From positions 1-34,192 of the forward strand of contig NZ_QWEO01000032.1 in assembly GCF_009936035.1 (NCBI RefSeq): 34,192 nt of DNA. Direction: 5' to 3'. How positions within the stretch are numbered: the first letter of the stretch is position 1; each line of letters begins with the position of its first letter. The DNA comes from Neglectibacter sp. X58. GTDB taxonomy: Bacteria; Bacillota; Clostridia; Oscillospirales; Acutalibacteraceae. This document shows positions 2,840 through 34,192 of this stretch, in pieces. Under the pieces are notes generated by a model. It was not told the DNA's origin. It worked only from the letters and a program-made list of their open reading frames with translations, and did not search any database. Made by a program: the position numbers and the translations under genes.

Positions 2840-4717
2840 TCAAGGCTGACTTGCAATCACCTTCAACATATCCTCATACATAGCATAAGATTTGGGAAGG
2901 TATTTTTTGATTGTTGCCAAACTTTCAGGGTTAGTCATTGTTGCAGAAGTCATTTCGGCAAACGCTTCAGTTGCAAGCCCCCACTCAACCCCATTAGAAG
3001 TTCGGTTTGTCCAGTAAGAACCGGCCCCATGTCCAATACCACAAGCAATCTTTCCACGGGTAGCCCCTTCTAATATATCAGAAAGATCACCATATTGCAA
3101 CGGGGTCAGTGATTTCACTTCAGCTTGAACAGTGGAATAAGCATAAGACTTTCTTACTTTGAATCCACCATAGGCCGTGTAATAATCCGCCGTAGATTGT
3201 GCCATCCAGCCTTTTTGAACAAAATATTGAAGGTCGGTTTGATGGGCCTTCATATCGGAAAGAACTGATTTAACCCAATCATCGACTTCAGCTTTAATAG
3301 TTTTAGGGAACGCTCCATCCATATAAGTTGACGAAAAATGCCATTGCCCATTAGCGTTTCCAAGGTGGGCGGTCAACCCGTCAATAGCGTGGCCGCTTTC
3401 ATGGAAGGTAGTTGCATAGGGGGCGCTCCATGAACGGCCTTTAGCATCCGATCCAATATTTAGATAAATATTATTACCTGAACAGTATGCCCCGCCCTTA
3501 TGGTTTGCATCGGCAACCTTGATTTGGCCTTCATATTTTTCCCACACAGTCTGAAGGTCAGGGTTTGCGCAGGCATCCACACGATCCCTTAGTTGATCAT
3601 AATGGTCTTTTCCAAATTTCTTACCAAATTCGGAATTGTAATCCCGGATCACTTTCGCAACAGTTACCGGGGTCAACCCGCTTTTCGATCCTCCACCGAG
3701 AAAAGCCTGTTCCCATTGGCAATAAGTCATGTTGGCCGGGACAAAGAATTTTTCCCCATTATCCTTCCGGGCAATGCGTTCAAAATCCCCATCATCAAAG
3801 TGTGGGCAAGTTGTTCCCCTGCAACTGGGGTGAAAGGGCGGAACAGTTACCCCCGGTTCATATTGGGATATGGGGATAACTTTTCCATCCAAATCACGGC
3901 ATATCTCACAGGTAAGGCGATCCAAGGTTTCAAGAATTTCAATTTCTTCAACGTCTAAATCTTTGTAGGTTTCCAAAGCTGAAACGGCGTTGAAGTAGGT
4001 TGTTTCCGTATGTACCAGCCGCCCGGCCTTGTATCTGGAAACACCAAACTTGTGTTTTACGGCATCCGTTATGGTCTGGGAACTGTCCCCCCGAAGAAGG
4101 CCCTGAGTTAAGGCGGTTTGAATTCCAGTGGTCAAATTGGCCTTATGCTCCCAGCACCTATCCCGAAAGGTTTTCTTGTCCCCCGTCCAGGGCCTTGAAA
4201 GCAGAGTTTCCAGCTTCCTTTGATCCAAGGCGGTGATATCCCATCCCATGCCCAGCCCCTTTTGCAGTTCATAGGCAGAATGGGTGTAGCCATTAGACAG
4301 AATCCCCTTTAGAAGATTGTCCACGCTATCAAGCTGATTTCCGTACAGAAGTTCAATCTGCTGTTGGATTTGTAATTGAATGGCTTCCAGCCGCCCAATA
4401 TGAAACCGGGTGGAAGCATTTTCTAGCTTTCTGATCCACTCAGGGGAAAGATTGGCCTTTTGCGCCGCCTGAATGTATTGATTCACACTCCACTTGAATT
4501 CCTCCAACTGGCCGGTAGTCAATAAGCGTTTGGCTTCAAAAAGGCTAACCCCATTGTTGGCGGCGAAGCGCTCATACCAGCTTTCTATCTCAGTCCTAAC
4601 AGATTGTTCAGTTTCTTGATAGATTCTTTCCAGGTCAGAAATACATCTATTGGCCTGAATATGGGCGGCGTTTTCCAGAATGGAAAAGCGGCCCCGCCAA
4701 TATTCTGAATTTTTCAC
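2840..4717 (-). CDS. MuF-type phage head protein with C-terminal HExxH metallopeptidase domain
   Basis: A 625-residue protein starting at GTG 4717 behind GGAGGG. Residues 1 to about 310 are a minor head (Mu gpF / SPP1 gp7-like) domain ending in its signature, here with C270, C273, HPSC at 296-299 and C304, which resembles a metal-binding knot. After a Gly/Ser linker (about 341-347), residues 350-625 form a separate domain with HESGH at 439-443 (the HExxH zinc peptidase motif) and a likely third ligand at E584 or E588 in TEAFAE. Plain MuF head proteins are often about half this length. Phage MuF fusions to toxin domains are a known class in Firmicutes prophages. The domain is probably carried in the capsid and delivered with the DNA. 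Substrate unknown. Confidence 0.8.
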   Translation of the reverse strand: MKNSEYWRGRFSILENAAHIQANRCISDLERIYQETEQSVRTEIESWYERFAANNGVSLFEAKRLLTTGQLEEFKWSVNQYIQAAQKANLSPEWIRKLENASTRFHIGRLEAIQLQIQQQIELLYGNQLDSVDNLLKGILSNGYTHSAYELQKGLGMGWDITALDQRKLETLLSRPWTGDKKTFRDRCWEHKANLTTGIQTALTQGLLRGDSSQTITDAVKHKFGVSRYKAGRLVHTETTYFNAVSALETYKDLDVEEIEILETLDRLTCEICRDLDGKVIPISQYEPGVTVPPFHPSCRGTTCPHFDDGDFERIARKDNGEKFFVPANMTYCQWEQAFLGGGSKSGLTPVTVAKVIRDYNSEFGKKFGKDHYDQLRDRVDACANPDLQTVWEKYEGQIKVADANHKGGAYCSGNNIYLNIGSDAKGRSWSAPYATTFHESGHAIDGLTAHLGNANGQWHFSSTYMDGAFPKTIKAEVDDWVKSVLSDMKAHQTDLQYFVQKGWMAQSTADYYTAYGGFKVRKSYAYSTVQAEVKSLTPLQYGDLSDILEGATRGKIACGIGHGAGSYWTNRTSNGVEWGLATEAFAEMTSATMTNPESLATIKKYLPKSYAMYEDMLKVIASQP

Positions 4718-4742: not shown

Positions 4743-4817
4743 TGGTGACGTGTACGGGAATCGAACCCATGATCCCGCCGTGAAAGGGCGGTGTCTTAAC
4801 CTCTTGACCAACACGCC
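4743..4817 (-). tRNA. tRNA-Glu (anticodon TTC)
   Basis: A complete 75-nt cloverleaf on the minus strand. The acceptor GGCGTGT pairs with ACACGTC (one G-T), the anticodon stem is CCGCC/GGCGG with loop CTTTCAC and anticodon TTC (plus strand 4782-4784), the T loop is TTCGATT, and CCA is encoded. It lies between the portal and MuF genes inside the late operon, so it is phage-borne. Confidence 0.93.
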
Positions 4818-8324: not shown

Positions 8325-8774
8325 TCAAGGACATGACAGGACATCTTCATTAGCTTCTGCAAAGGCAACTAAAGCGGCCCCGTGAACCCTTGTCACTTGC
8401 CGGGTTGAAAAGTTAATTTCAAAAGCAACCTTTTCTAATGGCTTCCCTTGCAGATACCGGCCAATCAAGATATTTCTTTGGTCAAGATCATCAAGCCGTC
8501 CGATCCGCTCATATGTATCTTTTTTCCAGTTATCAAAGTCAACTATATCCTGCTGAATTTCCCGTTCAAGTTCATCAATCCGGGCAAAAGTTTCCGCTAA
8601 AGTATCAACTGGGCCGGAAGTCTGAACCTTATCCGGCTTCAGTTCATAACTTTGACTTGTCAACCCTGCCCGAAGGGTGGCAATCGTAGATTTCAGCCTT
8701 GCGATCAGGCGGTCAGTCTGTTGAACCTTGTTCAGATACCGCTTGGCCGCTTGGATAAGTTCTTTTTCGGTCAT
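8325..8774 (-). CDS. Phage late-gene regulator, DUF1492-type sigma-like HTH protein
   Basis: A 149-residue protein from ATG 8774. Residues 1-100 are helical and charged; the C-terminal part (RNILIGRYLQGKPLEKVAFE then FSTRQVTRVHGAAL) is a sigma-70 region 4-like helix-turn-helix. This fits DUF1492/ArpU-like phage proteins that switch on the packaging and structural genes. It is the last gene before the terminases, the normal place for a late activator. A 9-bp hairpin (8787-8814) and the 108-bp element A lie just upstream, so its own expression may be controlled there. Confidence 0.72.
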   Translation of the reverse strand: MTEKELIQAAKRYLNKVQQTDRLIARLKSTIATLRAGLTSQSYELKPDKVQTSGPVDTLAETFARIDELEREIQQDIVDFDNWKKDTYERIGRLDDLDQRNILIGRYLQGKPLEKVAFEINFSTRQVTRVHGAALVAFAEANEDVLSCP

Positions 8775-8786
8775 TGGATAACATCC

Positions 8787-8814
8787 CTTTCTTACATCTT
8801 AGCCGGTAAGAAAG
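8787..8814. other. Hairpin in the leader of the late regulator
   Basis: Inverted repeat ctttcttac / gtaagaaag, 9 bp with a 10-nt loop. On the minus-strand mRNA it reaches into the AAAGGG ribosome site of the regulator gene, so it could mask translation initiation. The role is inferred. Confidence 0.4.
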
Positions 8815-8840: not shown

Positions 8841-8948
8841 TTGGATAGGATGGATAAGATAAAAGGCCCTATTCTCTATATATTATATTCTATATATTTT
8901 TTATTTTTATTTTATAAAGAATACTTACATCTTATCCATCCTATCCAA
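8841..8948. repeat. Element A: 20-bp inverted arms around a 68-nt AT-rich core
   Basis: The left arm TTGGATAGGATGGATAAGAT (8841-8860) is perfectly complementary to the right arm (8929-8948). The 68-nt core is almost all A and T. Each arm is two tandem copies of a TGGATARGA-like 9-mer, and more copies sit at 8984-8993 and 9005-9014. Element B at 17970-18077 has the same arm and core lengths. Possible roles: replication origin with iterons, a long operator, or a structured RNA. Confidence 0.8.
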
Positions 8949-8983
8949 AACCCCATAAACCCACTAATATCAAGGCTTCCCAC

Positions 8984-9014
8984 CGGATAAGATATTGATT
9001 TTTTATCTTATCCG
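8984..9014. repeat. Secondary inverted repeat beside element A
   Basis: cggataagat (8984-8993) and atcttatccg (9005-9014) form a 10-bp inverted repeat of the same motif that builds the arms of element A. This suggests several binding sites for one protein across 8841-9014. Confidence 0.6.
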
Positions 9015-9037
9015 CATCATATCCAGCGCCCCAACTC

Positions 9038-9598
9038 CTACCGCTGAAGAATATGGGAAGCGATCATATCAGCGTGGTGCGTCCACAGCACATTAGGGAA
9101 CCGGCAAATTGCGGCGGTGTAATGGCTCCACTGTTCCTGATCATCAAAAGCGCCCATGTGCCAGCGAATACAGGCAACTTCTTCTTCCGTCAACTGCATC
9201 CACGGGGCCAGTATCAAAACCGATTTATCACCATGCCCGGTGTAAAGCTGATCCCGCCCATCCCGGTGTTGCCAACCATACTTCACCACGGTTTTTGTTC
9301 TTTCGGTGATAACCGGTTCATAGGCTTCCAATTTGCACAGGTCATGGAACAGGCCCACAACCACCGGGGAACCGGGCCGCTCCCATTCCAGTTGGTTCCG
9401 TTGTGTCAGAACCATCAGGGTTTCCGCCACGGCCAAACTATGGGCATACAAGCCGCCAGCTTCAGCCCCATGGAATTTGGTGGACGCTGGAAGGTCAAAA
9501 AATCCGGCTTTTTTCAAAAATTCCTTGAAATTTTCCGAAATTCCCACCCCGTTTGCTGTCAAAAGGTCGAAACAATCTTGAATTTTACTTGATTTCAT
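9038..9598 (-). CDS. HD-domain phosphohydrolase-like phage protein
   Basis: A 186-residue protein from ATG 9598 behind GTGGAGG. It has the HD-superfamily metal site: H53 in YAHSLAVAETL, HDLCK with H85/D86, and later His residues at 122 (GHGDKS) and 147 (RWHMGAF). Such phage proteins are related to metal-dependent phosphohydrolases acting on nucleotides or nucleic acids; the substrate cannot be read here. It overlaps the upstream methyltransferase by 14 nt, so the two are translated together at the end of the early operon, just before the element A region. Confidence 0.75.
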   Translation of the reverse strand: MKSSKIQDCFDLLTANGVGISENFKEFLKKAGFFDLPASTKFHGAEAGGLYAHSLAVAETLMVLTQRNQLEWERPGSPVVVGLFHDLCKLEAYEPVITERTKTVVKYGWQHRDGRDQLYTGHGDKSVLILAPWMQLTEEEVACIRWHMGAFDDQEQWSHYTAAICRFPNVLWTHHADMIASHILQR

Positions 9599-10229
9599 CG
9601 GTTTTTTCCTCCACTTCATCCAGCCGGTCACAGCAGATTTGAAAGTAACCGGGATCAATTTCATATCCTATGTAGTGCCGCCCGGTGATCACGGCGGCAA
9701 CAGCGGTGGTTCCACTCCCAAGAAACGGATCGCAGATTATTTGGCCCGGTTCGCTGAACATTTCAATTAGCTGTTGAACTAATTCCGTGGGCTTTTGCGT
9801 TGGGTGGTATCGCTTATCTTTGCTATCCGTGATAAACCCCTGTTGTTTGAACACGATCCGCTTCACGGGCTTTTTGAACGTGGTGTAAATCAATTCCCCA
9901 TCAGCAAAGGGATTTTGAAAGGCCACATCCCCTTTCTTATCCCAAAATATCCAGCAGTTGGACGGTGGGAGTAAATGCCCAAAGTAGTTGCCGCCAAAGA
10001 TTATCAGGTTCCGGGCAACTCTGAACATTTCATTGAACAATTCAGGGGGGGGGATCATGCCATCCCAACCCCCGGCATAGCGCCGGTTCTTTGCGGCCCC
10101 AAAACCGTTGGTTCCCTTATCCGCTTTCTTCCCATAAGGCGGATCGGTCAGAATCAGATCAATGGATTTATCAGGAAGGGATTTCAGGCCCACCAAACAA
10201 TCCTGATTAAATATGGTATCAAGTTCCAC
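9585..10229 (-). CDS. Site-specific DNA methyltransferase (beta-type order, DPPY)
   Basis: A 214-residue enzyme that probably methylates adenine N6 or cytosine N4 using S-adenosylmethionine. Motif IV DPPY is at 29-32 and precedes the SAM-binding motif DPFLGSGTT at 167-175, the beta-class order seen in N6-adenine and N4-cytosine methylases. There is no restriction gene beside it, so it is likely an orphan phage methylase that protects phage DNA. GTG 10229 lies 8 nt after AAGCGGGG; the earlier GTG at 10238 overlaps that site. A run of nine C encodes PPP at residues 60-62. Confidence 0.85.
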   Translation of the reverse strand: MELDTIFNQDCLVGLKSLPDKSIDLILTDPPYGKKADKGTNGFGAAKNRRYAGGWDGMIPPPELFNEMFRVARNLIIFGGNYFGHLLPPSNCWIFWDKKGDVAFQNPFADGELIYTTFKKPVKRIVFKQQGFITDSKDKRYHPTQKPTELVQQLIEMFSEPGQIICDPFLGSGTTAVAAVITGRHYIGYEIDPGYFQICCDRLDEVEEKTDEIK

Positions 10230-10410
10230 GGGTTTCACCCCGCTTTCTCAATGCCCATTCATACTCTTTTTTCAAATCATGCACAGATTCATTGATCAGA
10301 TTCCAACACTCACAGGCCAGAAATGCCGCCATCTGTACTTTGTCCGCATCAGGCGCATCAGGAATATACTTTTCCACCATAGCCGAAACCCGTTGTTCTA
10401 AATCTCTCAC
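10219..10410 (-). CDS. Small phage early protein, unknown function
   Basis: A 63-residue, mostly helical protein (MRDLEQRVSAMVEKYIPDAP... ending KRGETRGT). GTG 10410 lies 8 nt after GGGAGGG. It overlaps the 68-residue gene before it and the methyltransferase after it, so it belongs to the tightly packed early operon. There is no recognisable motif apart from a Cys pair (ACEC) in the middle. Confidence 0.6.
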   Translation of the reverse strand: MRDLEQRVSAMVEKYIPDAPDADKVQMAAFLACECWNLINESVHDLKKEYEWALRKRGETRGT

Positions 10411-10613
10411 CGGTAAACCCTCCCTGTCTTGCGGTCTTTCAGTTCAATCCTGTTCAGCAGATCAAAACCCGCCGCATCAATTACATACTTCAGAACCCGA
10501 ACCAAAGCGCTAACCCGCTGTTGCTGTTCTGTTTCTTCCCGGATCACGGGCTTCAACCCCTCATAGGCCGTGGGGTCTGCGTAACCCTCCCCGTTCTGCC
10601 ACGGTTTAGGCAT
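10407..10613 (-). CDS. Small phage early protein, unknown function
   Basis: A 68-residue protein starting at ATG 10613 (MPKPWQNGEGYADPTAYEGL...), placed 8 nt after AAGG. The N-terminus is Pro/Gly-rich; the rest is helical with a basic end (KDRKTGRVYR). Short proteins with the 'PTAYEGLKPVIREE' style are frequent in early operons of clostridial siphophages, but their role is not known to me. It overlaps both neighbours by a few bases. Confidence 0.6.
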   Translation of the reverse strand: MPKPWQNGEGYADPTAYEGLKPVIREETEQQQRVSALVRVLKYVIDAAGFDLLNRIELKDRKTGRVYR

Positions 10614-10947
10614 CCGAATCACCTTCTTCCTTGTACCATGCTTCTATGTCACAGCCAATTTCCTTCAGCTTGTGACGGGCCAGCCAAGCCCCATCTTCCG
10701 CCCCCATTTGGTAATGTTGCCGTAGCTTTACAGTTTCCGTGTAGAACATTTCCCAAGCCTTTTTCAGCCGCTTGGGGCCAAAACCAAATTGGGTATGTAG
10801 CGCCCACAAGATGGAACTTTCCTTGTCCATATCGAAGCGTCGGTCATTCTCCACAATCTGCCGCCTGATTTCTTGATCCATGGCTTTCTGTTCAGCCTTG
10901 TTCAGTTGAACCCCAAAGATTGTTTTTCCAGACTTCTTGAAATACAT
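10606..10947 (-). CDS. Phage early protein, unknown function
   Basis: A 113-residue, helix-rich, charged protein (MYFKKSGKTIFGVQLNKAEQ...). ATG 10947 sits behind GGGAGGG. The central segment ILWALHTQFGFGPKRLKKAW, followed by a Tyr/Trp-containing helix, recalls small phage proteins encoded near methyltransferases, but there are no catalytic motifs. The gene lies 3 nt after the MazG-like gene and overlaps the next small gene, so it is part of the same operon. Confidence 0.6.
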   Translation of the reverse strand: MYFKKSGKTIFGVQLNKAEQKAMDQEIRRQIVENDRRFDMDKESSILWALHTQFGFGPKRLKKAWEMFYTETVKLRQHYQMGAEDGAWLARHKLKEIGCDIEAWYKEEGDSDA

Positions 10948-10950
10948 TGT

Positions 10951-11247
10951 TCAACCCTCCCGGTCAGCTTTTTCCAGACGATCCAACCAGCGGGTCAATT
11001 TTTCATTTTCCGCCTGTTCCGTGTTCACCAAAGAAGGGAACGCATCAACCAAAACATTCAGGCAATTCCGCACATCGGCGGTTTCCTCCAAAAGAGAATC
11101 CACAGCTTGGCAATAGCCAACCGGCGTGGGGTTCTCAGCCCGGATCACACGGGCCAGCTTCAAGGCCGCTTTGGATAGTTCAGCGGCTTCTTCCGCAAGC
11201 TGTTCCAGCGTGGCCGGAAGGCCGATTTTGGAAACAATCAGGTTCAC
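10951..11247 (-). CDS. MazG-like nucleotide pyrophosphohydrolase
   Basis: A 98-residue all-helical protein. The metal-binding signature EEAAEL (in LEQLAEEAAELSKAALKLAR, about residues 14-33) and a second acidic helix EETADVRN fit the MazG/dUTPase all-alpha NTP pyrophosphatase group (EExxE plus ExxD). Phage members probably alter the nucleotide pool during replication. GTG 11247 lies 8 nt after AAAGGTGG; the two GTG codons at 11259 and 11256 overlap the ribosome site. Confidence 0.75.
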   Translation of the reverse strand: MNLIVSKIGLPATLEQLAEEAAELSKAALKLARVIRAENPTPVGYCQAVDSLLEETADVRNCLNVLVDAFPSLVNTEQAENEKLTRWLDRLEKADREG

Positions 11248-11263
11248 GATTTTCACCACCTTT

Positions 11264-11845
11264 TCAGTTAAACCATTTAATCACTGGATCACCGGTGAAT
11301 CCTTTTTCCCATATATACCACGCATAAGCAATAGCATTTTCAACATGGGTGAAATCTCCGTTTTTGGCACATGATAGCCGGGAACGAGATATGTAGACGG
11401 TTCGGGGCGGGGTCTTGGCGAACAACTTACCCCGGCGCTTCCCCTCCAAAAACTGCACCTTCAGGAACATGGCAACTTTTCCACCGGGCCGGACGGTTTC
11501 AAGCGCCCGTTCCACAAATTCCAATCCCGCCGAATAAGGGGGATTTGTGATAATATCCCCCTCAAAATCCGGGAAGGTTTCTGTCAGGAAATCCATGGGT
11601 TCAGAATCACCAAACCCCCGGTAAATCAAATCAGTGGAAATAACTTCATGCCCATGGGCCTGAAGCACCTTGGAAATATGCCCTTCCCCGCAAGCCGGTT
11701 CCCATATCACCGGGGCAAAAGTTTCCAGCGCCAACAGCATTTCCACAGCTTGGGGATCAGTGGCGTAATAGTCATGTTCTGCCCGTTCATCCGGGGTATG
11801 GTTTGAACTCCCAATGGGCTTGAACACCTTCCTTGATCCGGCCAT
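11264..11845 (-). CDS. DNA N6-adenine methyltransferase-like protein (NPPY)
   Basis: A 193-residue protein with a SAM-binding motif I EPACGEGHIS (about 49-58) followed by motif IV TNPPYS (about 99-104), the gamma-type order of N6-adenine methylases. The fold continues to the end without a clear target-recognition domain. ATG 11845 is 2 nt after the primase stop, with GGTGG as ribosome site. It is the second methylase in this early operon. Specificity cannot be told from the sequence. Confidence 0.8.
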   Translation of the reverse strand: MAGSRKVFKPIGSSNHTPDERAEHDYYATDPQAVEMLLALETFAPVIWEPACGEGHISKVLQAHGHEVISTDLIYRGFGDSEPMDFLTETFPDFEGDIITNPPYSAGLEFVERALETVRPGGKVAMFLKVQFLEGKRRGKLFAKTPPRTVYISRSRLSCAKNGDFTHVENAIAYAWYIWEKGFTGDPVIKWFN

Positions 11846-11847
11846 AC

Positions 11848-13737
11848 TCAACCACCATCCTTCACAAAAACACTTGTTTTCTCTTTCTTTACCCACAGTT
11901 GCTTAGTTTTGAATCCACAGCGCTTGCAGACTTGCCGGGAAAACTCAATAGCTGAAAGAGCTTGGAAGTTATTGGCTATGCAGTATTCCTTATAGCGCCG
12001 GTAAACCGTCTTTGTGGCTTCATTGGCGATCCAATCAGCCCCCACTTCATTGATAAACCCAATAATGGGGTTATTGTTTTCTTCATATTCGTCAAGCTGT
12101 CCCTGAACCCGGCTTGAAGTGGTGAACTGATTATTGATCAACACTCGCTTCAGGGCCGCAAGGCCAAGCTGGATCAGGTATTCCATGGGTTCCTGTTCAC
12201 AAAGTTCATCCTTGATAAATGGCCGAAAATCAGCATCGTTGGGGGTAAACTTAGCATCAAAAGGAACAATGGTAAGGCGGCGCTGAACGGCCCCGGTTTT
12301 GTCTTTGATCCGGGGAATGACATTGGCAGAAAACAGGAACTTGGCATAGTTGATAAATTCAAAGGGGTCTTTTCCTTTGCGCTCCACATTCACCTGATCC
12401 CCTGTCACCAACTTTTTGAAAATTGACGCATTGGCAATAAATTCATCCCCAATATCATCACCTATGTTGGCAAGTTTTCCAAACAGTTCAGCGGTCTTGA
12501 ATCTGTCCCCAAGTTCCTTCAAATCAAGGGAAGCAATATTTTCATTCCCCATCATGTTTTTGACCATGTGAAGGAAGGTGCTTTTGCCGTTGCTTTTATC
12601 CCCAATCAGAATGAAGGCTTTCCCCAACTCATTCCGCCTATACAGGCAATAGCCCACCATTTCTTCCAACAGCGCCCGGACTTCAGAATCATCACAGGCC
12701 AGCCGGTCAAGGGTATGATCCAGAAGGTCAGAATGGGCGGCGGGGTTGTAGGGCCAAGGAATTTTGTTGGTGATAACCACAGCCGGGGTGAAATCTCTGA
12801 AGGTGCCATCCACGATGTTATAAAGGCCGTTGCTGAAGGCGATCACAGCGGGGTTGGTGGTCTTGATTTCATCTTCAATCATGATTTCAAGATAGGCTAA
12901 TACCTCTGATCTTTGCGCCCGTTTCAGGCCGGGGATCAGCTTGATCATTTGGGCTTCAATTTGGGAATCCCCGGTAACATAAATACCATTCCGGTATATG
13001 TGAAGGCGGTTATTGATTTTGACAATGTGGTTATTGTTTTTTAGATAAGTAGCGAACTTGTCAAACAGGAATGTACTACCATTGAAGAAGGATGTTTTCT
13101 TGAAGGCATCATCCCGCAAGATAACTTCCAATTCCCGGTCAGACAAGGGGTCTGCCAAAACATACCGGTTAATCAGCCTGATACATTCGCGGGCTTCTTC
13201 CTTGGTGAAATCCTCGCTTTGCAGGGTCAGAATGTAGGTATAAAGCGCCGTATTCCGTCCGTCACCTTTACCCATTTTCAAAAAATCCTGATTGCATTTC
13301 ACCGGGGTCAGCCACAAAGGAAGTTCCTGAATTTTATCTTCCGGGGTGTCATAGATAATAGGCCGCTCAACCCCTTTGAATTTTAGAATTGCATAGCTGT
13401 TATTCCTGCCCACTTTGGCATCCGTGGTGATCCCAAGGGCAAGGGTTTTCTTTGTCCAGCTTTTTTCAACCAGCCCTTCAGGATTTTTGAAGATGAAGTG
13501 TTTCCCCCGTGTGGTTTGATACACCCGGCATTTCAATTCAAAATCCTGAACAATCTGAAACAGAAGATCAGAAGTTTCAGCATCGTCCACATCAATCAGA
13601 ATAGCTTCAGCCCCAAGAATACCGGCGTATTCGTCAAGGTCTGCCACATCTTCAAGAGTGTTCAGCCGTTTCCGGCCCTTGAATTTCTCCAAACACTGTT
13701 TATCTTTGGTGGGCACATAGCCCCTGAAAATTTGCAT
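11848..13737 (-). CDS. Phage primase/helicase (PrimPol-like N-terminus, D5/SF3 helicase)
   Basis: A 629-residue protein combining priming and unwinding for phage replication. The N-terminal PrimPol-like part has the acidic motif LIDVDD (48-52) and a later GKHFIF. A linker contains RNTALYTYIL (161-170). The C-terminal superfamily 3 helicase has Walker A GDKSNGKST (379-387) and a Walker B-like segment NIGDDIGDEF. This is the P4/D5 family layout at normal length. The ATG lies 9 nt after an 11-nt G run (13747-13757) that serves as, or replaces, the ribosome site. Confidence 0.87.
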   Translation of the reverse strand: MQIFRGYVPTKDKQCLEKFKGRKRLNTLEDVADLDEYAGILGAEAILIDVDDAETSDLLFQIVQDFELKCRVYQTTRGKHFIFKNPEGLVEKSWTKKTLALGITTDAKVGRNNSYAILKFKGVERPIIYDTPEDKIQELPLWLTPVKCNQDFLKMGKGDGRNTALYTYILTLQSEDFTKEEARECIRLINRYVLADPLSDRELEVILRDDAFKKTSFFNGSTFLFDKFATYLKNNNHIVKINNRLHIYRNGIYVTGDSQIEAQMIKLIPGLKRAQRSEVLAYLEIMIEDEIKTTNPAVIAFSNGLYNIVDGTFRDFTPAVVITNKIPWPYNPAAHSDLLDHTLDRLACDDSEVRALLEEMVGYCLYRRNELGKAFILIGDKSNGKSTFLHMVKNMMGNENIASLDLKELGDRFKTAELFGKLANIGDDIGDEFIANASIFKKLVTGDQVNVERKGKDPFEFINYAKFLFSANVIPRIKDKTGAVQRRLTIVPFDAKFTPNDADFRPFIKDELCEQEPMEYLIQLGLAALKRVLINNQFTTSSRVQGQLDEYEENNNPIIGFINEVGADWIANEATKTVYRRYKEYCIANNFQALSAIEFSRQVCKRCGFKTKQLWVKKEKTSVFVKDGG

Positions 13738-13786
13738 GAATCAGCGCCCCCCCCCCCGGCCATCTTTTGAAGGTTAATTTTCAATT

Positions 13787-15400
13787 TCATCTTTTCACCC
13801 CGTAATCTTCTAAACGCTTCCAAGCCAAATCAATATAATATTGCCTGTCCAGTTCATCAGGAATGGGCATAGTGGAAACATTGGAATTGATAATGAAACA
13901 ATGCTGGGGGGTGTTAGCGAATTTTTCAGGGTTCTTTTTTCGGCCCCTAACAACCTTGCCCGAAACCTTGTAAATACCGCCTTTTCGGTGGTCTTTGGAC
14001 GCAAACACCCGGAAGGTTTTATCTTTCTGAACTTCCCCACCACGGAATCGAATCACTTTTTTGGAACGCCCTTTTTCATCTCTGATCCGTTCTTCCACAA
14101 TGGTTGGGGCATACAGGGCATAAAGATATTTAGAACTTACTTTCACCACTTTCTGAAAGTCTCGCAAGCTGGTACACGCCCCAACAGTTTCTTCCGGGGG
14201 TACATCATTAGTGAAATATTCCACAATGGCCCGGTTCACAATGGGAAGATCATAATCCAGATCAGACAGCTTTTTTACATAGGCCCCCTTCGCTTTTACG
14301 GCTCCCGTTTCACGATCAATCAAGAAGTAATTGTTCACATCTTTTTGGAAAATATGGCCCATGAAAATATCAAAGTCCATTCTCATTCCGGTTCTTTGTT
14401 CCCATTCCCAAACCACATCATCAATGGTGTCAAAGTCTTGTTCATAGTTATTAGGCTTGATTATGATACCATCGGTATTGTTTTGGATTAGTCGGCAACA
14501 GTTGGCGGCTTCAAGATGTTCAATCAAATCCAATAGCAAAAGTTGTCCGTTAATACAAATGGTGTTATTGCTCATAGGATCATAAAGGGACGATCCCGGT
14601 TCTTTCATTTGCCCTGAAATGGCGTTATCCATAATTTTGAAAGGCTGACGGGCTTTCTTGTCCCCTTTCCGTTTGAACTCTATATTGCTATCATGGATAA
14701 ATTCAAAATTTTCAGGATTATCCATCACTCTATACCCAATTTTGAATTGCTTTTGGAGAGAAGGGTAATAGGCAGTAACATCAACCACCATGAAAATCCC
14801 TGAATCATGGTGCTTACGAATAGCCCCATGTCCACCTCCCCAAGCAAACGTATGGGGAACACCCGCAACCATCACATTTTCTTGCGTTTTTTTGTAATCA
14901 TGATTGATCGGGTTTTTATACCAATTCGCAACAAATTTGTATTTATTCAATCGCACACAATCCAAAATAGGAAATTCAAATTCATCATCAAAAGTTTTAC
15001 CTTTACGGTTGCCGCCCAAAATCGTTGCCGCAAGCTGGGCTTTGGTCTTTCCTATGCAGTTACTTCCAAGATGAAAATGATTGACAAAGAACATGGTGGT
15101 ATTAAATTCCTCAATGCTCCTAATCCAAACTTCGATTGTTTCTTCAACATCATGGCGGCAATATTTGATAGTTTCGGCCAATTCTTCTTTCGTTAAAGGG
15201 CGGTCAATGTCAAAAGGAACGCTTGTTTCCTTGATGGAATGGCCCATGAAGGCTTCCAGCGCCTTCAGGCTGATTGGCGGGTTAGGCATCACATCATAGT
15301 TGATCAGGGGGTAGTTGCGGAACAGACTTGAAAACCTGTAACCGGGCTTGTCCTGCAAAATGATCCAGTCATTGATTTCCTTGGGGTTGAAACCGCACAT
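13787..15400 (-). CDS. Family B DNA polymerase, N-terminus probably lost
   Basis: A 537-residue open frame from the first ATG. It has Exo III YCRHD (80-84), motif A DVTAYYPSL (207-215), a motif B-like region near KIMDNAISGQM, and motif C NTDG (308-311), so it is a phage family B replicative polymerase. Conserved coding continues upstream in the same frame to a TGA at 15602-15604, including an Exo II-like segment GFNSRNYDQYILKGI. No ATG, GTG or TTG occurs in those 67 codons, and Exo I (an FDIE-type motif) is not found. The gene therefore appears truncated or frameshifted at its 5' end, and activity is doubtful. Confidence 0.75.
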   Translation of the reverse strand: MCGFNPKEINDWIILQDKPGYRFSSLFRNYPLINYDVMPNPPISLKALEAFMGHSIKETSVPFDIDRPLTKEELAETIKYCRHDVEETIEVWIRSIEEFNTTMFFVNHFHLGSNCIGKTKAQLAATILGGNRKGKTFDDEFEFPILDCVRLNKYKFVANWYKNPINHDYKKTQENVMVAGVPHTFAWGGGHGAIRKHHDSGIFMVVDVTAYYPSLQKQFKIGYRVMDNPENFEFIHDSNIEFKRKGDKKARQPFKIMDNAISGQMKEPGSSLYDPMSNNTICINGQLLLLDLIEHLEAANCCRLIQNNTDGIIIKPNNYEQDFDTIDDVVWEWEQRTGMRMDFDIFMGHIFQKDVNNYFLIDRETGAVKAKGAYVKKLSDLDYDLPIVNRAIVEYFTNDVPPEETVGACTSLRDFQKVVKVSSKYLYALYAPTIVEERIRDEKGRSKKVIRFRGGEVQKDKTFRVFASKDHRKGGIYKVSGKVVRGRKKNPEKFANTPQHCFIINSNVSTMPIPDELDRQYYIDLAWKRLEDYGVKR

Positions 15401-15749
15401 AATCCCTTTCAGAATGTATTGGTCATAGTTGCGGCTATTGAACCCGGCCCAAATTTCCTTTTTATGTTCATTATAGAAGTGTTCCAGTTTGGCTTTATCA
15501 TTGACAATTACAGTTTCTTTACATTGTTTAGTGGATATTGCCCGGAATTTGGAGAAGAACGGACAGTGGTAATTGATTTCGCAGAAATCCCAATCCTTGG
15601 TTCAACCGAACCCGGATATAAGAAACATTCCCTTCAGTGTGATCACCTGGAAGATTGCCGTCATACAGGTGGCCGGGAGATAAACTGTCCGCTCTTCATC
15701 CAATGTCCAGACATTTAACCGTGAAGGCCGTGGTACTGTTGCCGCAGTA

Positions 15750-15947
15750 TCACGGCTTTTCTTCAACCTTGCAGGCATTGGAAGCAAGGTTAAACGTCCC
15801 CGGCACCATTTCCAAGATCAACTTGGGTGCTTCCCCGGCGCGGTGTTGATAGGTCACAACTGAAAGCATATTGGAAACGTCCTGCCCATCCACAATTACT
15901 TCCGTAGCTATGCCGCCAACGTGTCTGATTTCAACGTTTGCAAGCAT
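15750..15947 (-). CDS. Small phage early protein, unknown function
   Basis: A 65-residue protein from ATG 15947 behind GTGAGGTGAAA. It looks beta-rich (MLANVEIRHVGGIATEVIVDGQDVSNMLSVV...), with the length and style of the short proteins found near the start of leftward early operons. A run of ten C (minus strand) lies between the preceding gene and this one. No family recognised. Confidence 0.6.
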   Translation of the reverse strand: MLANVEIRHVGGIATEVIVDGQDVSNMLSVVTYQHRAGEAPKLILEMVPGTFNLASNACKVEEKP

Positions 15948-15990
15948 CGGTTTCACCTCACTTTCATTTTGGTATGTGGTGGGGGGGGGG

Positions 15991-16257
15991 TTACGGCATC
16001 GGGATAAACCCGATAATCCGTTCATAGGCTTCTTGTGCCTGCCGGATCACACTCCAAGCATCTTGGCGGATTGCATTCACATCCGGCATCTGATCTTCAG
16101 GTCTAGCAAGATCGACCACAGGCCACATGATAGGATCAGGGACTTCAGAAGCATTGGCTTCAATCAGGTGGTTCAGAATGGCGGTGAAGGCTTCCTTGCG
16201 GCTATCCGTGGTGCAAACCATAACGGCGTTGTCATTATCCCAAATGTGATACATCAT
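15991..16257 (-). CDS. Small phage early protein, unknown function
   Basis: An 88-residue protein, ATG 16257 (or 16254) behind AAAGGAA. The N-terminal half is mixed alpha/beta (MMYHIWDNDNAVMVCTTDSR...); the C-terminal half is a long helix. It is the second gene of the early operon. No catalytic or metal-binding pattern is visible and I recognise no family. Its stop codon touches the G10 tract at 15981-15990. Confidence 0.6.
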   Translation of the reverse strand: MMYHIWDNDNAVMVCTTDSRKEAFTAILNHLIEANASEVPDPIMWPVVDLARPEDQMPDVNAIRQDAWSVIRQAQEAYERIIGFIPMP

Positions 16258-16337
16258 TTTTCTTATTCCTTTCTGCCCTGCCATCATCAGCACCGGTGGG
16301 GCGGTTCCGGTGGACGGGCCTTCCGGCCCGTTTCGGC

Positions 16338-16511
16338 TTAGTGGTTAATCAGCGTGAAATCATCCACGATCACGGCATCCGCCTTGTAATGCTCGTTGTA
16401 AGCGTTCTTGAAAATGCTTGCATTGGGGAAATCGTTGAACGCTCCGGCTATGTACTTGACTTGGGCCTTCCGTTCCTCGTCCCAATGGGTAGCTACTACG
16501 AAATACTTCAT
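16338..16511 (-). CDS. First gene of the leftward early operon, unknown function
   Basis: A 57-residue protein from ATG 16511 behind a very good AGGAGG site. The mixed alpha/beta sequence (MKYFVVATHWDEERKAQVKY...) ends VIVDDFTLINH. It lies about 60 nt downstream of the early promoter, where phages usually place control proteins, but there is no helix-turn-helix motif and no similarity I can name. Confidence 0.65.
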   Translation of the reverse strand: MKYFVVATHWDEERKAQVKYIAGAFNDFPNASIFKNAYNEHYKADAVIVDDFTLINH

Positions 16512-16573
16512 GTTGTGTTCCTCCTGTATTTGAATTTTGTGTTTGGGTTTGTGTTCTGTGTGTCTGTATACAC

Positions 16574-16602
16574 ATAATAGCACACCACCGCGTGTGTGTC
16601 AA
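16574..16602 (-). promoter_or_regulatory. Leftward early promoter (PL-like) with operator
   Basis: On the minus strand, TTGACA (16602-16597), a 17-nt spacer and TATTAT (16579-16574), a near-perfect sigma-A promoter. The spacer holds the near-palindrome cacacgcggtggtgtg, shared in form with the promoter on the other strand. It is a likely operator for the repressor at 16689. Confidence 0.85.
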
Positions 16603-16634
16603 CACTTTTTTTGAAAAAAATTTACTTTTTTGTG

Positions 16635-16663
16635 TTGACATACACACGGCGGTGTAGTATTAT
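16635..16663 (+). promoter_or_regulatory. Rightward repressor promoter with operator
   Basis: TTGACA (16635-16640), 17-nt spacer, TATTAT (16658-16663). The spacer contains tacacacggcggtgta, a near-palindrome resembling that in the leftward promoter. The two -35 boxes are 32 nt apart, so one protein can bind both and control the lysogeny switch. Confidence 0.85.
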
Positions 16664-16688
16664 AAGTAACAGAAGGGGGTGAATAGCC

Positions 16689-17171
16689 TTGAACTCAAGG
16701 ATTCTGCAAGTACGCAAATATTTGAATCTGTCCCAAAAGGAATTTGGTAATTCTTTGGGTGTAAGCCGTGATGTTATTGCCAATTATGAAAATGGCCGGG
16801 TAATCCCTCCAAATTCCATAATTAAACTTCTTTGTTCTGTCCATTCCATAAATCAGGAGTGGCTTGAAACAGGCCAAGGGGAAATGCTGGATCGAGTGAA
16901 CAGAAAAAGCGATCTGGAAATTCTATTGGAAACTCTTTCCACTAACGATAGGGACGGATATAAAAAGCGGTTAGTGTCCGTTATGGCCCGGTTAAAGCCT
17001 GAAGATTGGGAAGTGTTGGAACGGATTGCCCGTGAAATGCTCCAAACTGAACCAACCACCCCGCCTGATCCAGCGGCGGAAATGGCTGATCTGAAACAAC
17101 GGGTGGAAGCCTTAGAAAAAGAAGAAGCCGAAACTCCGGCCCCGGCTCCCATCCGTACCCATTCCCATTGA
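16689..17171 (+). CDS. Phage repressor, XRE-family HTH
   Basis: A 160-residue protein. Residues 1-60 form a Cro/CI-type helix-turn-helix (LSQKEFGNSLGVSRDVIANY at about 14-33), followed by a helical region and a Pro/Glu-rich tail ending RTHSH. There is no LexA-like peptidase domain, so it would not self-cleave and induction must come from another factor, perhaps the antirepressor downstream. The start is TTG 16689, about 8 nt after AAGGGGG. The promoter at 16635 and the divergent early promoter both carry the likely operators. Confidence 0.85.
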   Translation: MNSRILQVRKYLNLSQKEFGNSLGVSRDVIANYENGRVIPPNSIIKLLCSVHSINQEWLETGQGEMLDRVNRKSDLEILLETLSTNDRDGYKKRLVSVMARLKPEDWEVLERIAREMLQTEPTTPPDPAAEMADLKQRVEALEKEEAETPAPAPIRTHSH

Positions 17172-17196
17172 TCTTCATTTACTATGAAAACTGAAA

Positions 17197-17224
17197 ACCG
17201 GCCCCCTAATTGTTGGGGGCCGGT
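17197..17224. terminator. Hairpin after the repressor gene
   Basis: accggccccc / gggggccggt, a perfect 10-bp stem with an 8-nt loop, 25 nt after the repressor stop. It lacks a strong T run on the plus strand, so it may be a weak terminator or an RNA-stabilising element. Confidence 0.5.
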
Positions 17225-17255
17225 CATAGAAAGGTGGTTGGTATGGATAAAAAAT

Positions 17256-17284
17256 AAAGGGGGTGGCAAAACACCACCCCCTTT
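17256..17284. terminator. Hairpin before the antirepressor gene
   Basis: aaagggggtgg / ccacccccttt, a perfect 11-bp stem with a 7-nt loop. On the minus strand it is followed by TATTTTTTA, so it can stop leftward transcripts. On the plus strand it ends 17 nt before the antirepressor start, next to its AAAGGAAG ribosome site. Confidence 0.55.
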
Positions 17285-17301
17285 ACAGAAAGGAAGATCA
17301 T

Positions 17302-17913
17302 ATGAACGAACTGCAAGTTTTCAGCTATGAAGAAACCCAAGTCAGAACCATCCACATTGACGGTGAACCGTGGTTTGTGGGAAAAGACGTGGCGGCGGCT
17401 CTTGGATATGGTGACACCGATCAAGCCATCAGAAACCATGTTGATGATGAAGATAAGCTAACCCGTAATTTCAACGGGTCAGGTCAGAACCGGGCTATGA
17501 CGGTAATCAACGAATCCGGCGTATATGCCCTGATCTTTGGCTCCAAGCTGGATAGCGCCAAACGATTCAAACATTGGGTGACAAAGGAAGTTTTGCCTTC
17601 CATCCGTAAAACCGGGGCTTACAGCGTTCCCAAAAGGGTGATCCCGCTCATGGCAAAACAGACAGTAGCCAAAGCCCAAGAAACACGGGAAGAAATGAAA
17701 GCCCTTGGCGAAAATCCAACAAAAATCCTGAAAACTGTTAAGGAAATATACAATAAGGCCGGGTATAATCCTCCTGAATTGGTACTTGATCCCCAAACAA
17801 TGACAATGGAAGATTGGGAAGATATGCTTGACTTTGCATATACTCACAAGGGTGAAGTTACCACCTATGAAGATTACCTTGCCTATCTTCTTATTCCCCG
17901 GCTGGAATCCTGA
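17302..17913 (+). CDS. Phage antirepressor with BRO-N domain
   Basis: A 203-residue protein from ATG 17302 behind AAAGGAAG. Residues about 1-110 are a BRO-N domain: VFSYEETQVRTIHIDGEPWFVGKDVAAALGYG, then an ESGVYALIFGSKLDSAKRFK segment and VTKEVLPSIRKTGAY. The remainder is helical. BRO-N proteins bind DNA and act as antirepressors in many prophages. It lies downstream of the repressor, after two hairpins, so it is probably controlled separately. Element B follows. Confidence 0.83.
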   Translation: MNELQVFSYEETQVRTIHIDGEPWFVGKDVAAALGYGDTDQAIRNHVDDEDKLTRNFNGSGQNRAMTVINESGVYALIFGSKLDSAKRFKHWVTKEVLPSIRKTGAYSVPKRVIPLMAKQTVAKAQETREEMKALGENPTKILKTVKEIYNKAGYNPPELVLDPQTMTMEDWEDMLDFAYTHKGEVTTYEDYLAYLLIPRLES

Positions 17914-17969
17914 TCTTATCCAATCTGTTCCGTTGAAAATCCTTGATATACCGGGCTTTTCAAGGGTTT

Positions 17970-18077
17970 TTGGATAAGATGGAACAGATCTTTTTCCTAT
18001 TCCGTATATTATATATATTATATATTATTTTTATTATTTTTTAGAAATAATACTTACATCTGTTCCATCTTATCCAA
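17970..18077. repeat. Element B: 20-bp inverted arms around a 68-nt AT-rich core
   Basis: The left arm TTGGATAAGATGGAACAGAT (17970-17989) is perfectly complementary to the right arm (18058-18077), with a 68-nt core between. Compared with element A, arm positions 8, 15 and 16 differ and each is compensated in the partner arm. The cores share a cctattc block at the left and aatacttac at the right end. Further motif copies flank it: atctgttccg at 17923-17932 and cggaacagat at 18112-18121. No gene fits in the gap 17914-18299. Confidence 0.82.
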
Positions 18078-18128
18078 AGGGCTAAAAGCCTTGGAAATAC
18101 TGGATTTTTTACGGAACAGATCATGGAA

Positions 18129-18150
18129 CACATCTTAGGCACATCTTAGA
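18129..18150. repeat. Tandem 11-bp repeats upstream of the integrase
   Basis: cacatcttagg and cacatcttaga lie end to end. Short direct repeats beside an integrase gene are typical of arm-type integrase binding sites, but no core site can be assigned here. Confidence 0.45.
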
Positions 18151-18222: not shown

Positions 18223-18295
18223 AATAGCCCCGGACAAGGCTATTATAACACCTGCCCTTGGGTTTCTGCAAGCATTTTCAGAAAGGACAGGTGTT
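18223..18295 (+). promoter_or_regulatory. Structured integrase leader
   Basis: aatagcc/ggctatt (18223-18229, 18238-18244) form one hairpin. aacacctg (18247-18254) pairs with caggtgtt (18288-18295), directly followed by TTTTT and the ATG at 18300. The second pairing covers part of the AAAGGACAGG ribosome site and looks like a terminator, so integrase expression may be switched here. Confidence 0.4.
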
Positions 18296-18299
18296 TTTT

Positions 18300-19319
18300 A
18301 TGAGATTGCCCAACGGCTATGGTTCAGTTGTAAAGCTATCAGGTAAGCGCCGCCGCCCGTATATGGTCAGGGGCGGGGTGTATGGGTATGACGATAGGGG
18401 TTATCCCCAATATGACGTTGTGGGTTACGCCGAAACACGGGAACAGGGGTTGACCATGTTAGCGGAATACAACCGCAACCCTTGGGACGTGGACAAGGCC
18501 AAGATCACCCTGAAGGAACTGTTTGAACTTTGGAAAGAGAAAAAGGCCCCCAAGCTGGGAACTTCCAACCGGCAATCCCTTTGTTCAGCGTTCAATCATT
18601 GTTCAAAGTTGCTGAACAAGCCATATAAAGTGATCCGGGCTTATGAAATGCAGGAAACTATTGACGGTTGCGGCAAGGGGTACAGTACACAGGCGGCAAT
18701 CAAAAACCTTTGGGGGCATCTTGACCGGTTCGCCTTGGAACTAGACGTGATCAACCGCTGTTACTCCGAACTGTTGACTTCCGATCCGGTGCCGCCCACG
18801 TCCAAACAGCCCTTCACGGATCAGGAAGTGGAAACGGTTTGGGGGCATCAGGCGGAACCTTGGGTGGATAGCGTGTTGGTGTTCCTCTATTCCGGTTGGA
18901 GAATTTCAGAATTGTTGAACCTGAAGAAATCCGCCGTTGACTTGGAAGCCGGAACCATGACAGGCGGAACCAAAACCAAGGCCGGGAAAAACAGGGTGGT
19001 TCCTATTCATTCCAAGATCAGGCCCTTTGTGGAAGCCCGTATGGAACAGCCGGGGGAATACCTGTTCAGCTATGCCGGGAAGAAGTGTTCAGAAAGCCAA
19101 TACCGGGCATTGTGGGCCGGGTTTATGTCTGAATGGGGCATGGAGCACACCCCGCACGAAACCCGCCACACATTCAGAACCCGCCTTGGATCAGCCGGGG
19201 CAGATCAGAAGTGTTGTGATTTACTTATGGGACATACCTCCAAAGATACCGGCAATAGAACCTATAACCACAAAACCCTTGAAGAACTGCGGTTCAGCAT
19301 TGAACTAATAACAAAATAG
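18300..19319 (+). CDS. int: Phage integrase, tyrosine recombinase
   Basis: A 339-residue enzyme that inserts and excises the prophage. The catalytic set is complete: R201 (YSGWRISELL), a Lys near 225-230, H286 and R289 (HETRH), H312 (MGHTS) and Y322 (RTYNH). The N-terminal arm-binding part opens MRLPNGYGSVVKLSGKRRRP and is followed by a SAM-like core-binding domain (about 65-160). ATG 18300 follows AAAGGACAGG; the upstream in-frame ATG at 18258 has none. It is the last prophage gene at the right end and ends just before a strong terminator. Confidence 0.93.
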   Translation: MRLPNGYGSVVKLSGKRRRPYMVRGGVYGYDDRGYPQYDVVGYAETREQGLTMLAEYNRNPWDVDKAKITLKELFELWKEKKAPKLGTSNRQSLCSAFNHCSKLLNKPYKVIRAYEMQETIDGCGKGYSTQAAIKNLWGHLDRFALELDVINRCYSELLTSDPVPPTSKQPFTDQEVETVWGHQAEPWVDSVLVFLYSGWRISELLNLKKSAVDLEAGTMTGGTKTKAGKNRVVPIHSKIRPFVEARMEQPGEYLFSYAGKKCSESQYRALWAGFMSEWGMEHTPHETRHTFRTRLGSAGADQKCCDLLMGHTSKDTGNRTYNHKTLEELRFSIELITK

Positions 19320-19325
19320 TAACAA

Positions 19326-19367
19326 AAAAGCCGGGAACCCCTGAAAAATCAAGGGTTCCCGGCTTTT
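19326..19367. terminator. Bidirectional terminator after the integrase
   Basis: aaaagccgggaaccc and gggttcccggctttt form a perfect 15-bp stem with a 12-nt loop. A and T runs on both sides let it work in both directions. The prophage-chromosome junction probably lies just beyond, in 19368-19412. Confidence 0.85.
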
Positions 19368-19440: not shown

Positions 19441-19457
19441 GCAGGTTATGCGTATTT

Positions 19458-19685
19458 TTAGGAATGGGACTCGATGTACTCCACCAGGCTGCCCACAGTC
19501 TTGATGTTTTCCACCTCGCCATCCGGGATTTCCACCTCAAACTCGTCCTCAATGGACATGAGCAAATCCACCACGTCCAGGGAATCGGCTCCCAGGTCGT
19601 CCTGCAAAGTGGTTTCCGTGGTGATGTTGTCCTCTTCCACGTCAAACTGCTCACTGAGAATCGTCTTGATTTTTTCCAGTACCAT
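19458..19685 (-). CDS. acpP: Acyl carrier protein
   Basis: A 75-residue acidic four-helix protein. S35 in LGADSLDVVDLL is the site that receives phosphopantetheine. It carries growing acyl chains in fatty acid synthesis. ATG 19685 lies behind AGGAGG. It stands alone here, with its own terminator, divergent from the aro operon; other fatty acid genes are not in the window. It is the first chromosomal gene beside the prophage and is intact, so integration did not damage it. Confidence 0.95.
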   Translation of the reverse strand: MVLEKIKTILSEQFDVEEDNITTETTLQDDLGADSLDVVDLLMSIEDEFEVEIPDGEVENIKTVGSLVEYIESHS

Positions 19686-33894: not shown

Positions 33895-34192
33895 GTGCGC
33901 CATGATCCTCCTGCCCCTACGGGTAAATGCGGAAAGCAAGGAGGGAGAGCGAAGCCGAACTGTTCTGAAATATCCGGTTGCTACGGATAAGGCGATGAAA
34001 CGCATCAGGGTTAATGATACTTCCCTACGGGGCTGGCGGAGAACCCGGCAGAGGTGAGATTCCTATGGACTCGGTTAGCAGCCGAGCGCCTGATGACTTC
34101 CCATTGTGCTTGGGGCGTCGAGGACAAATAAAGCACATTACATAGCTGCCAAAAGCGGCTATGAATCTAAGAGAAAGGAGGTAAGCCGAATG
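33895..34192 (+). mobile_element. 5' part of a group II intron
   Basis: The sequence begins gtgcgcc at 33895, the usual GUGYG 5' end. It continues with a structured GC-rich domain I-like region containing ggcgatgaaacgc, the gttaatgat block and a gagattcctatggactcggt segment. It closes with gagaaaggaggtaag just before ATG 34190-34192, as in the lead-in to the reverse transcriptase/maturase of such introns. The protein and 3' end lie outside the window. The exact 5' boundary is uncertain. Confidence 0.72.

What the first reader, a model, noticed from the sequence alone, without database searches (positions are those of the whole stretch)
8841..18077. Twin 108-bp inverted-repeat elements with compensated arm changes
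Elements A (8841-8948) and B (17970-18077) share the same layout: perfect 20-bp inverted arms, a core of exactly 68 nt that is very AT-rich, a cctattc block at the core's left and aatacttac at its right. The arms differ at three positions (8, 15, 16) and each difference is matched in the opposite arm. That shows selection for pairing or for symmetric protein binding. They lie in the same orientation 9.1 kb apart. I know no named family with this design.
Basis: seen in the sequence. Interest (0 to 1): 0.85.

Follow-up and report, generated by a model that had tools for sequence, protein, structure and literature searches.

The report
Twin phage replication origins
Two matching DNA elements in a bacterial prophage look like a pair of replication start sites read by the phage's own DNA-unwinding protein through short repeats, and related phages often carry the same pair spelled in a different repeat 'word'.

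Summary
Each arm is two tandem 9-bp repeats (iterons); more copies lie outside the arms. The prophage encodes a D5-type primase-helicase whose best solved relative is SaPI5 Rep. Relatives keep the layout but spell the iteron differently: 30 of 42 loci have a strict element just upstream of an arpU-like gene, and 15 of 19 phages carry at least two copies of their A-site iteron upstream of int, against 20 of 332 foreign combinations. The annotated replication origin of Streptococcus phage Sfi21 has the same design. Iteron type tracks the last ~20 residues (winged-helix wing) of the helicase. Best reading: two PICI/Sfi21-type origins flanking the replication module, read by one initiator. The matched arm changes reflect inverted protein sites, not RNA pairing. 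The origin type is known; the twin placement recalls SPP1 oriL/oriR, but with an unrelated initiator. Origin activity itself was not tested.

The parts
8841..8948 (-). Element A: putative replication origin, between an arpU-like gene (8325-8774) and an HD-domain-like gene (9038-9664); strand given is that of arpU and of the replication genes
8843..8860 (+). A, inner tandem iterons GGATAGGAT + GGATAAGAT
8861..8928 (.). A, 68-nt AT-rich core (putative unwinding region)
8929..8946 (-). A, inner tandem iterons GGATAAGAT + GGATAGGAT (inverted)
8985..9024 (.). A, outer iterons: GGATAAGAT 8985-8993 (+), 9005-9013 (-), GGATATGAT 9016-9024 (-, one mismatch)
8776..8804 (.). A, weak outer iterons on the arpU side: GGATAACAT 8776-8784 (+), GGCTAAGAT 8796-8804 (-), one mismatch each
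17970..18077 (-). Element B: second putative replication origin, between a Bro-N antirepressor-like gene (17263-17913) and the integrase gene (18258-19319); core in the same orientation as A
17972..17989 (+). B, inner tandem iterons GGATAAGAT + GGAACAGAT
17990..18057 (.). B, 68-nt AT-rich core
18058..18075 (-). B, inner tandem iterons GGAACAGAT + GGATAAGAT (inverted)
17913..17931 (-). B, outer iterons GGATAAGAT 17913-17921 and GGAACAGAT 17923-17931
18113..18133 (+). B, outer iterons GGAACAGAT 18113-18121 and GGAACACAT 18125-18133 (one mismatch)
11848..13737 (-). D5-type primase-helicase, putative initiator (D5_N, DUF5906, Pox_D5; TIGR01613; relative of SaPI5 Rep)
11860..11913 (-). Codons 609-626 of the helicase: predicted beta-hairpin (wing) of the C-terminal winged helix, the segment that tracks iteron spelling
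13787..15400 (-). Phage DNA polymerase (phrog_1252) of the replication module between A and B
8325..8774 (-). arpU-like late regulator gene next to A (phrog_36)
18258..19319 (+). Tyrosine integrase next to B

Best explanation
A and B are two origins of DNA replication of the prophage. Shown by sequence: each is a 68-nt AT-rich core flanked by inverted pairs of tandem 9-bp iterons, with further iterons outside; relatives keep this layout with other spellings; the two sites of one phage usually share a spelling; the spelling follows the C-terminal wing of the phage's D5-type primase-helicase. Inferred: this helicase binds the iterons on both sides of the core through its C-terminal domain, melts the core and loads itself, as reported for SaPI Rep and proposed for Cch2, and starts theta replication after induction. 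One site lies beside the late/packaging genes and one beside int, so the replication module sits between them; the second may be a late origin or a fork-stalling site, as proposed for SPP1 oriR. The matched arm differences are drift of sites that one protein must read on both sides of the core.
For: Layout and outer iterons. Strict element within 450 bp upstream of arpU in 30 of 42 loci (window included; only exact copies removed); in the rest of those loci (658 kb) 5 elements, 4 of them on the int side and one an A-side element just outside the 450-bp limit. A-site iteron at least twice within 1.5 kb upstream of int in 15 of 19 phages, against 20 of 332 foreign combinations. A separate genome has a prophage with both sites and the same iterons, L070. 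The annotated origin of phage Sfi21 (record 34487-34784) holds 18-bp arms of two tandem 8-mers around a 71-nt core, 89% AT. A site directly 3' of the helicase gene in phi31 (L155), PI-Sepi-HH2 (L039), L076, L080 and L081, and iterons around an AT-rich stretch, without a strict element, in Wanderer (L038). Helicase relative of SaPI5 Rep by sequence (E 1.8e-48) and fold (E 5.4e-29). Iteron distance follows helicase residues 600-629 given the core (r 0.29, p 0.0003, 27 loci) and 608-629 given the core (r 0.27, p 0.0003, 45 loci); of 61 windows of 20 residues the strongest is 601-620. L046 and L047: 16 helicase differences, 11 of them at 610-627, and different iterons; L042 and L032: ArpU 11% and TerL 5% apart, wholly different iterons. 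Passages of PMC7581432 and PMC6092414 describe this mechanism and layout for SaPI/PICI.
Against: No replication or binding measurement. A is about 2.9 kb from the helicase gene, not directly 3' of it as in PICIs. 12 of 42 loci lack a strict element upstream of arpU; 66 of 125 helicase loci, many cut short and some overlapping, have a strict element anywhere, 10 of them two or more. L034 and L036 show one copy of their own iteron near int, L043 one copy plus an element, L108 an element near int but no A iteron. Javan621 has repeats 3' of its primase but no strict element. Mantel correlations are modest; the core keeps a weaker association in the larger set (r 0.14, p 0.013); ArpU correlates given the tail in one subset of 19 (r 0.26, p 0.03), not in the subset of 17. 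Sfi21 has one site of its iteron, not two. B mixes two spellings.
Confidence: 0.86

Rival explanations
1. Only one of the two sites is an active origin; the other is a fork-stalling, incompatibility or partition site that binds the same initiator, as proposed for SPP1 oriR in the switch to concatemers.
For: SPP1 precedent (passages of PMC6316719). In the distant relatives with a strict element directly 3' of the helicase gene one site was seen, and Sfi21 has one, so a second is not obligatory. B mixes two iteron spellings while A is uniform.
Against: Both sites keep the full design, core included, also in other phages (L070, L009, L017, L117, L124; element lists).
Confidence: 0.35
2. The elements are operators or promoters: a phage regulator binds the repeats to control arpU/late genes (A) and int (B).
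For: A is next to arpU and B next to int in many phages. ArpU distance correlates with iteron distance in one subset. One weak promoter-like match in each element.
Against: Promoter-like matches are at the shuffle level (1 found, means 1.0 and 1.2). The cores keep one genomic orientation in 7 of 8 phages compared, although int and arpU point opposite ways (L017 is the exception). L042 and L032 have close ArpU proteins but unrelated iterons. In Sfi21, phi31, L039, L076 and L080/L081 the same design stands 3' of the helicase gene, not at int or arpU.
Confidence: 0.08
3. A structured RNA: 20-bp stem with a 68-nt AU-rich loop, kept by compensatory changes.
For: Both strands fold well.
Against: Iterons recur outside the arms in both orientations; whole iteron spellings are replaced between phages with core length varying from 58 to 159 nt among strict A-site elements; no Rfam match at A or B.
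Confidence: 0.03
4. A mobile repeat (MITE-like) or a recombination/attachment site copied twice.
For: Two copies in one prophage with inverted arms.
Against: Positions are conserved between phages while sequence is not; exact DNA was not found in 299 other genomes of the family and a 361-base query around A found nothing in the phage collection.
Confidence: 0.02

Closest known systems
PICI/SaPI replication origin (SaPI5 Rep, PDB 7ola)
   Same: [quoted passage not shown] related D5-type primase-helicase; C-terminal domain reported to read the iterons (passages of PMC6092414 and PMC7581432)
   Different: Here in full-size tailed phages, two sites per genome, neither directly 3' of the helicase gene
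Streptococcus phage Sfi21 origin (302-bp non-coding region)
   Same: Arms of two tandem iterons inverted around a 71-nt AT-rich core, 3' of a primase/helicase gene
   Different: One site of its iteron; other spelling
Lactococcus phage phi31, region 3' of pri31
   Same: 13-bp arms with GGAACA repeats around 68 nt of 85% AT
   Different: One site seen in a 12-kb partial record; that phi31 has a mapped origin is recalled, not read here
SPP1 oriL/oriR
   Same: Two similar origins about 13 kb apart, repeats plus AT-rich unwinding element, one initiator for both (passages of PMC6316719)
   Different: Initiator gp38 with loader gp39 and DnaB-type helicase gp40 instead of a D5-type helicase
SCCmec Cch2 and its putative origin
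   Same: D5-type helicase that binds short repeats through its C-terminal domain (passages of PMC7581432)
   Different: Single site beside cch2; replication in vivo not shown there

Membership tests
[quoted passage not shown]
PICI/SaPI-type replication origin | Related primase-helicase (Rep) in the same element | tested here: met
PICI/SaPI-type replication origin | Directly 3' of rep | tested here: not met
   A about 2.9 kb downstream and B about 4.2 kb upstream of the helicase gene. So: works like, not filed as, a PICI origin
PICI/SaPI-type replication origin | Iterons read by the Rep C-terminal domain | tested here: inconclusive
   Indirect: wing and iteron covary
PICI/SaPI-type replication origin | Supports autonomous replication | not testable with these tools
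   needs an experiment
PICI as a whole element | Satellite without its own portal, scaffold and large terminase genes (recalled definition) | tested here: not met
   terminase subunits, portal and scaffold genes present
SPP1-type twin origins | Two like origins read by one initiator | tested here: inconclusive
   Two like sites shown; shared initiator inferred
SPP1-type twin origins | gp38/gp39/gp40-type proteins | not tested
   No search with SPP1 proteins was run
Known structured RNA (Rfam) | Match to a curated covariance model | tested here: not met
   No match at A or B at gathering thresholds

The most novel reading that the evidence does not exclude
A widespread lineage of tailed phages of Clostridia runs on two self-loading-helicase origins whose iterons change together at both sites and with about 20 residues of the initiator's wing: a private replication code that lets co-resident sister prophages fire separately. 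B, half in its own spelling (GGATAAGAT) and half in that of the sister prophage in the same genome (GGAACAGAT, contigs C143 and C168), would be an origin caught in transition or readable by both initiators.
Probability: 0.2. Interest if true: 0.8.

Novelty: new variant of a known kind. Interest (0 to 1): 0.56.

Why it matters
[quoted passage not shown] it is common in tailed phages, often in two copies. That ties phages and satellites to one initiation system. The pairs of close phages with different iterons and nearly identical helicases (L046/L047) point at a small protein segment that may set origin specificity, so initiator-origin co-evolution, compatibility of co-resident prophages and satellite hijacking become directly testable. 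It also gives a way to find origins in many uncultured phages by layout instead of sequence.

Tried and rejected
Exact-sequence searches led nowhere: a 361-base query around A had no match in the phage collection, and the right-arm pattern was found in 1 of 300 family genomes, the window's own. Layout plus gene neighbourhood worked instead. GC skew gave no clear inflection tied to A or B. Promoter/terminator scans were at shuffle level for promoters. The first Mantel test used iterons set by hand; it was repeated with automatic ones (34 automatic rows, 5 dropped as duplicates or non-iteron arms, 2 without usable helicase, 27 used) and with a larger set (58 loci, 45 after removing near-copies; a few automatic iterons such as L112 and L107 are doubtful and were kept). 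In one search, 3 of 22 phages (L112, L134, L119) were dropped because no arpU hit gave an A site. An ArpU-binding reading was considered and set low (see rivals). A chimeric-contig reading was considered: contig C168 ends in 77 bases identical to window 15444-15520, probably an assembly overlap with a sister prophage, so A and B could come from two prophages; B holding GGATAAGAT as A does, and C143 and C168 holding the GGAACA type, speak for A and B belonging together, but this is not proven.
Full report
What is there. Both elements exist exactly as described. Read closely, each 20-bp arm is TT plus two tandem 9-mers: GGATAGGAT GGATAAGAT in A, GGATAAGAT GGAACAGAT in B. More 9-mers lie outside the arms: around A at 8985 (+), 9005 (-) and, with a mismatch, 9016, 8796 and 8776; around B at 17913 (-), 17923 (-), 18113 (+) and, with a mismatch, 18125. 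So the letters that differ between A and B also occur in copies that are not arm partners. The detector used later finds these two elements in the window and none in 40 dinucleotide shuffles.

Setting. Positions 1 to about 19.3 kb are a prophage; the genes further right read by eye as shikimate-pathway genes (translations, not searched). Its replication module lies between A and B: a D5-type primase-helicase (11848-13737, minus strand; D5_N, DUF5906, Pox_D5, TIGR01613), a DNA polymerase (phrog_1252) and methylase genes. A lies between an HD-domain-like gene and an arpU-like gene that precedes the terminase genes; B lies between a Bro-N gene and the integrase gene.

Relatives keep the layout, not the letters. 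The exact arm pattern is in 1 of 300 family genomes, the window's own. But loci fetched through the polymerase and helicase repeatedly show inverted pairs of tandem iterons around an AT-rich core, spelled GGAACAGAT, TGTAACAGAT, GGTAACAG, TGTTACKGAT, GGTTCAAGAT, TGTTCAAGAT, AAGTCAAGAT, CTTCAACAT and others. Of 125 loci with a helicase hit, many of them short and some overlapping, 66 have a strict element and 10 have two or more. Of 42 loci with an arpU-like gene and enough upstream sequence (exact copies removed, window included), 30 have a strict element within 450 bp upstream of it; elsewhere in 658 kb of those loci there are 5, four of them on the int side (W, L009, L017, L025) and one an A-side element just outside the limit (L030). 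21 of the 30 have perfect arms, and core lengths run from 58 to 159 nt.

Two sites per phage. For 22 phages the integrase region could be read (20, the window, L070). In 19 an arpU hit also gave the A site. The automatically chosen A-site iteron occurs at least twice in the 1.5 kb upstream of int in 15 of 19, against 20 of 332 combinations with iterons of other phages. Below two: L043 (one copy, but an element is there), L034, L036 and L108 (no A iteron found, yet an element near int). A phage with both elements in a separate genome is L070 (G471). In 7 of 8 phages compared the two cores have the same genomic orientation, although int and arpU point opposite ways; L017 is inverted.

Anchor in a known origin. 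The GenBank record of Streptococcus phage Sfi21 annotates an 'origin of replication, 302 bp non-coding region, phage inhibitory sequence' 3' of a putative primase gene. It holds 18-bp perfect arms, each of two tandem TTAGTTAC, around a 71-nt core of 89% AT. Sfi21 has its iteron cluster once. In phi31 (L155), PI-Sepi-HH2 (L039), L076 and L080/L081 an element stands directly 3' of the helicase/primase gene; Wanderer (L038) has iterons and an AT-rich stretch there without a strict element, and Javan621 (L154) only repeats. L072, L074 and L078 have none by the strict detector.

Who reads the iterons. The helicase matches SaPI5 Rep in sequence (7ola, E 1.8e-48) and fold (E 5.4e-29). In the model its C-terminus is a helix (window residues 596-607) followed by a beta-hairpin (609-616 and 619-626), a winged helix (model numbering is one lower). 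Iteron distance correlates with distance in residues 600-629 given the helicase core (r 0.29, p 0.0003, 27 loci), while the core given the tail does not. In 45 loci residues 608-629 given the core give r 0.27, p 0.0003; the core given the wing keeps r 0.14, p 0.013; the strongest of 61 windows along the protein is 601-620. L046 and L047 differ at 16 alignment positions of the helicase, 11 of them at 610-627, and have iterons GGAACAGAT and GTTACGGAT. L042 and L032 have ArpU proteins 11% and TerL proteins 5% apart but wholly different iterons; their helicases differ at 28 positions, 12 at 609-629 and 8 at 563-596. ArpU also correlates given the tail in the subset of 19 (r 0.26, p 0.03) but not in the subset of 17, so it is disfavoured rather than excluded.

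Mechanism. [quoted passage not shown] A legend in PMC6092414 says of E. [quoted passage not shown] I infer the same for A and B: initiator bound on both sides, core melted, helicase self-loaded. Twin origins with one initiator are known in SPP1, about 13 kb apart, where stalling at oriR is proposed to trigger concatemer synthesis (passages of PMC6316719). Whether A and B are both active is open.

Sister prophage. The same genome holds a related prophage in pieces: C143 (2436-4760 is 81% identical to window 10641-8360, ArpU 85% identical, A-type site 4174-4280 of pure GGAACAGAT), C168 (B-type site 841-950) and C109 (integrase 94% identical at DNA level). Only one helicase and one polymerase of this type are found in the assembly, and C168 ends in 77 bases identical to window 15444-15520, so the sister's replication genes may be collapsed into the window contig. 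B's mixture of GGATAAGAT and GGAACAGAT is the basis of the boldest reading.

Novelty. The origin type is known; its duplication around the replication module in tailed phages with a D5-type initiator, with iterons matched within and turned over between phages, was not found in the open-access library by the searches, most of whose hits were seen as listings only; subscription papers, including the original Sfi21 and SaPI origin papers, were not read.

Noticed in passing
window 16272-16338 (-); L070 5962-6028 (+): Hammerhead ribozyme type II (Rfam RF02276, 43.5 bits) upstream of the replication genes; a second one (44.5 bits) between the int-side element and the polymerase gene in the G471 prophage L070, but none at gathering threshold in L009, L017, L045, L091.
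   Followed up: partly
G000 contigs C143 (L196), C168 (L037), C109: Fragments of a sister prophage in the same genome with GGAACA-type iterons at both kinds of site; C168 shares exactly 77 end bases with window 15444-15520, which looks like an assembly overlap.
   Followed up: partly
L196 78-2670: A large-serine-recombinase-like ORF and a MATE-like transporter ORF (read by eye) abut the phage part of C143, and the latter's frame runs into a phage gene; another mobile element seems to have joined the sister prophage there.
   Followed up: no
window 34011-34068 (+): pemK RNA motif (Rfam RF02913, 68.2 bits) in the host DNA beyond the prophage.
   Followed up: no
window 4743-4817 (-): tRNA-Glu (TTC) gene inside the prophage next to the Mu-F-like gene; L045 also has tRNA matches at 19222-19293 and 19449-19531.
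   Followed up: no
window 15400-15600 (-): The polymerase frame stays open for 67 codons upstream of the first listed start, and similarly (29-85 codons) in 8 relatives, while the PHROG match starts at profile position 122 of 663: start or N-terminal part unclear.
   Followed up: partly
window 19326-19367: Near-perfect 19-bp inverted repeat with a 4-nt loop just after int, terminator-like, near the prophage end.
   Followed up: no
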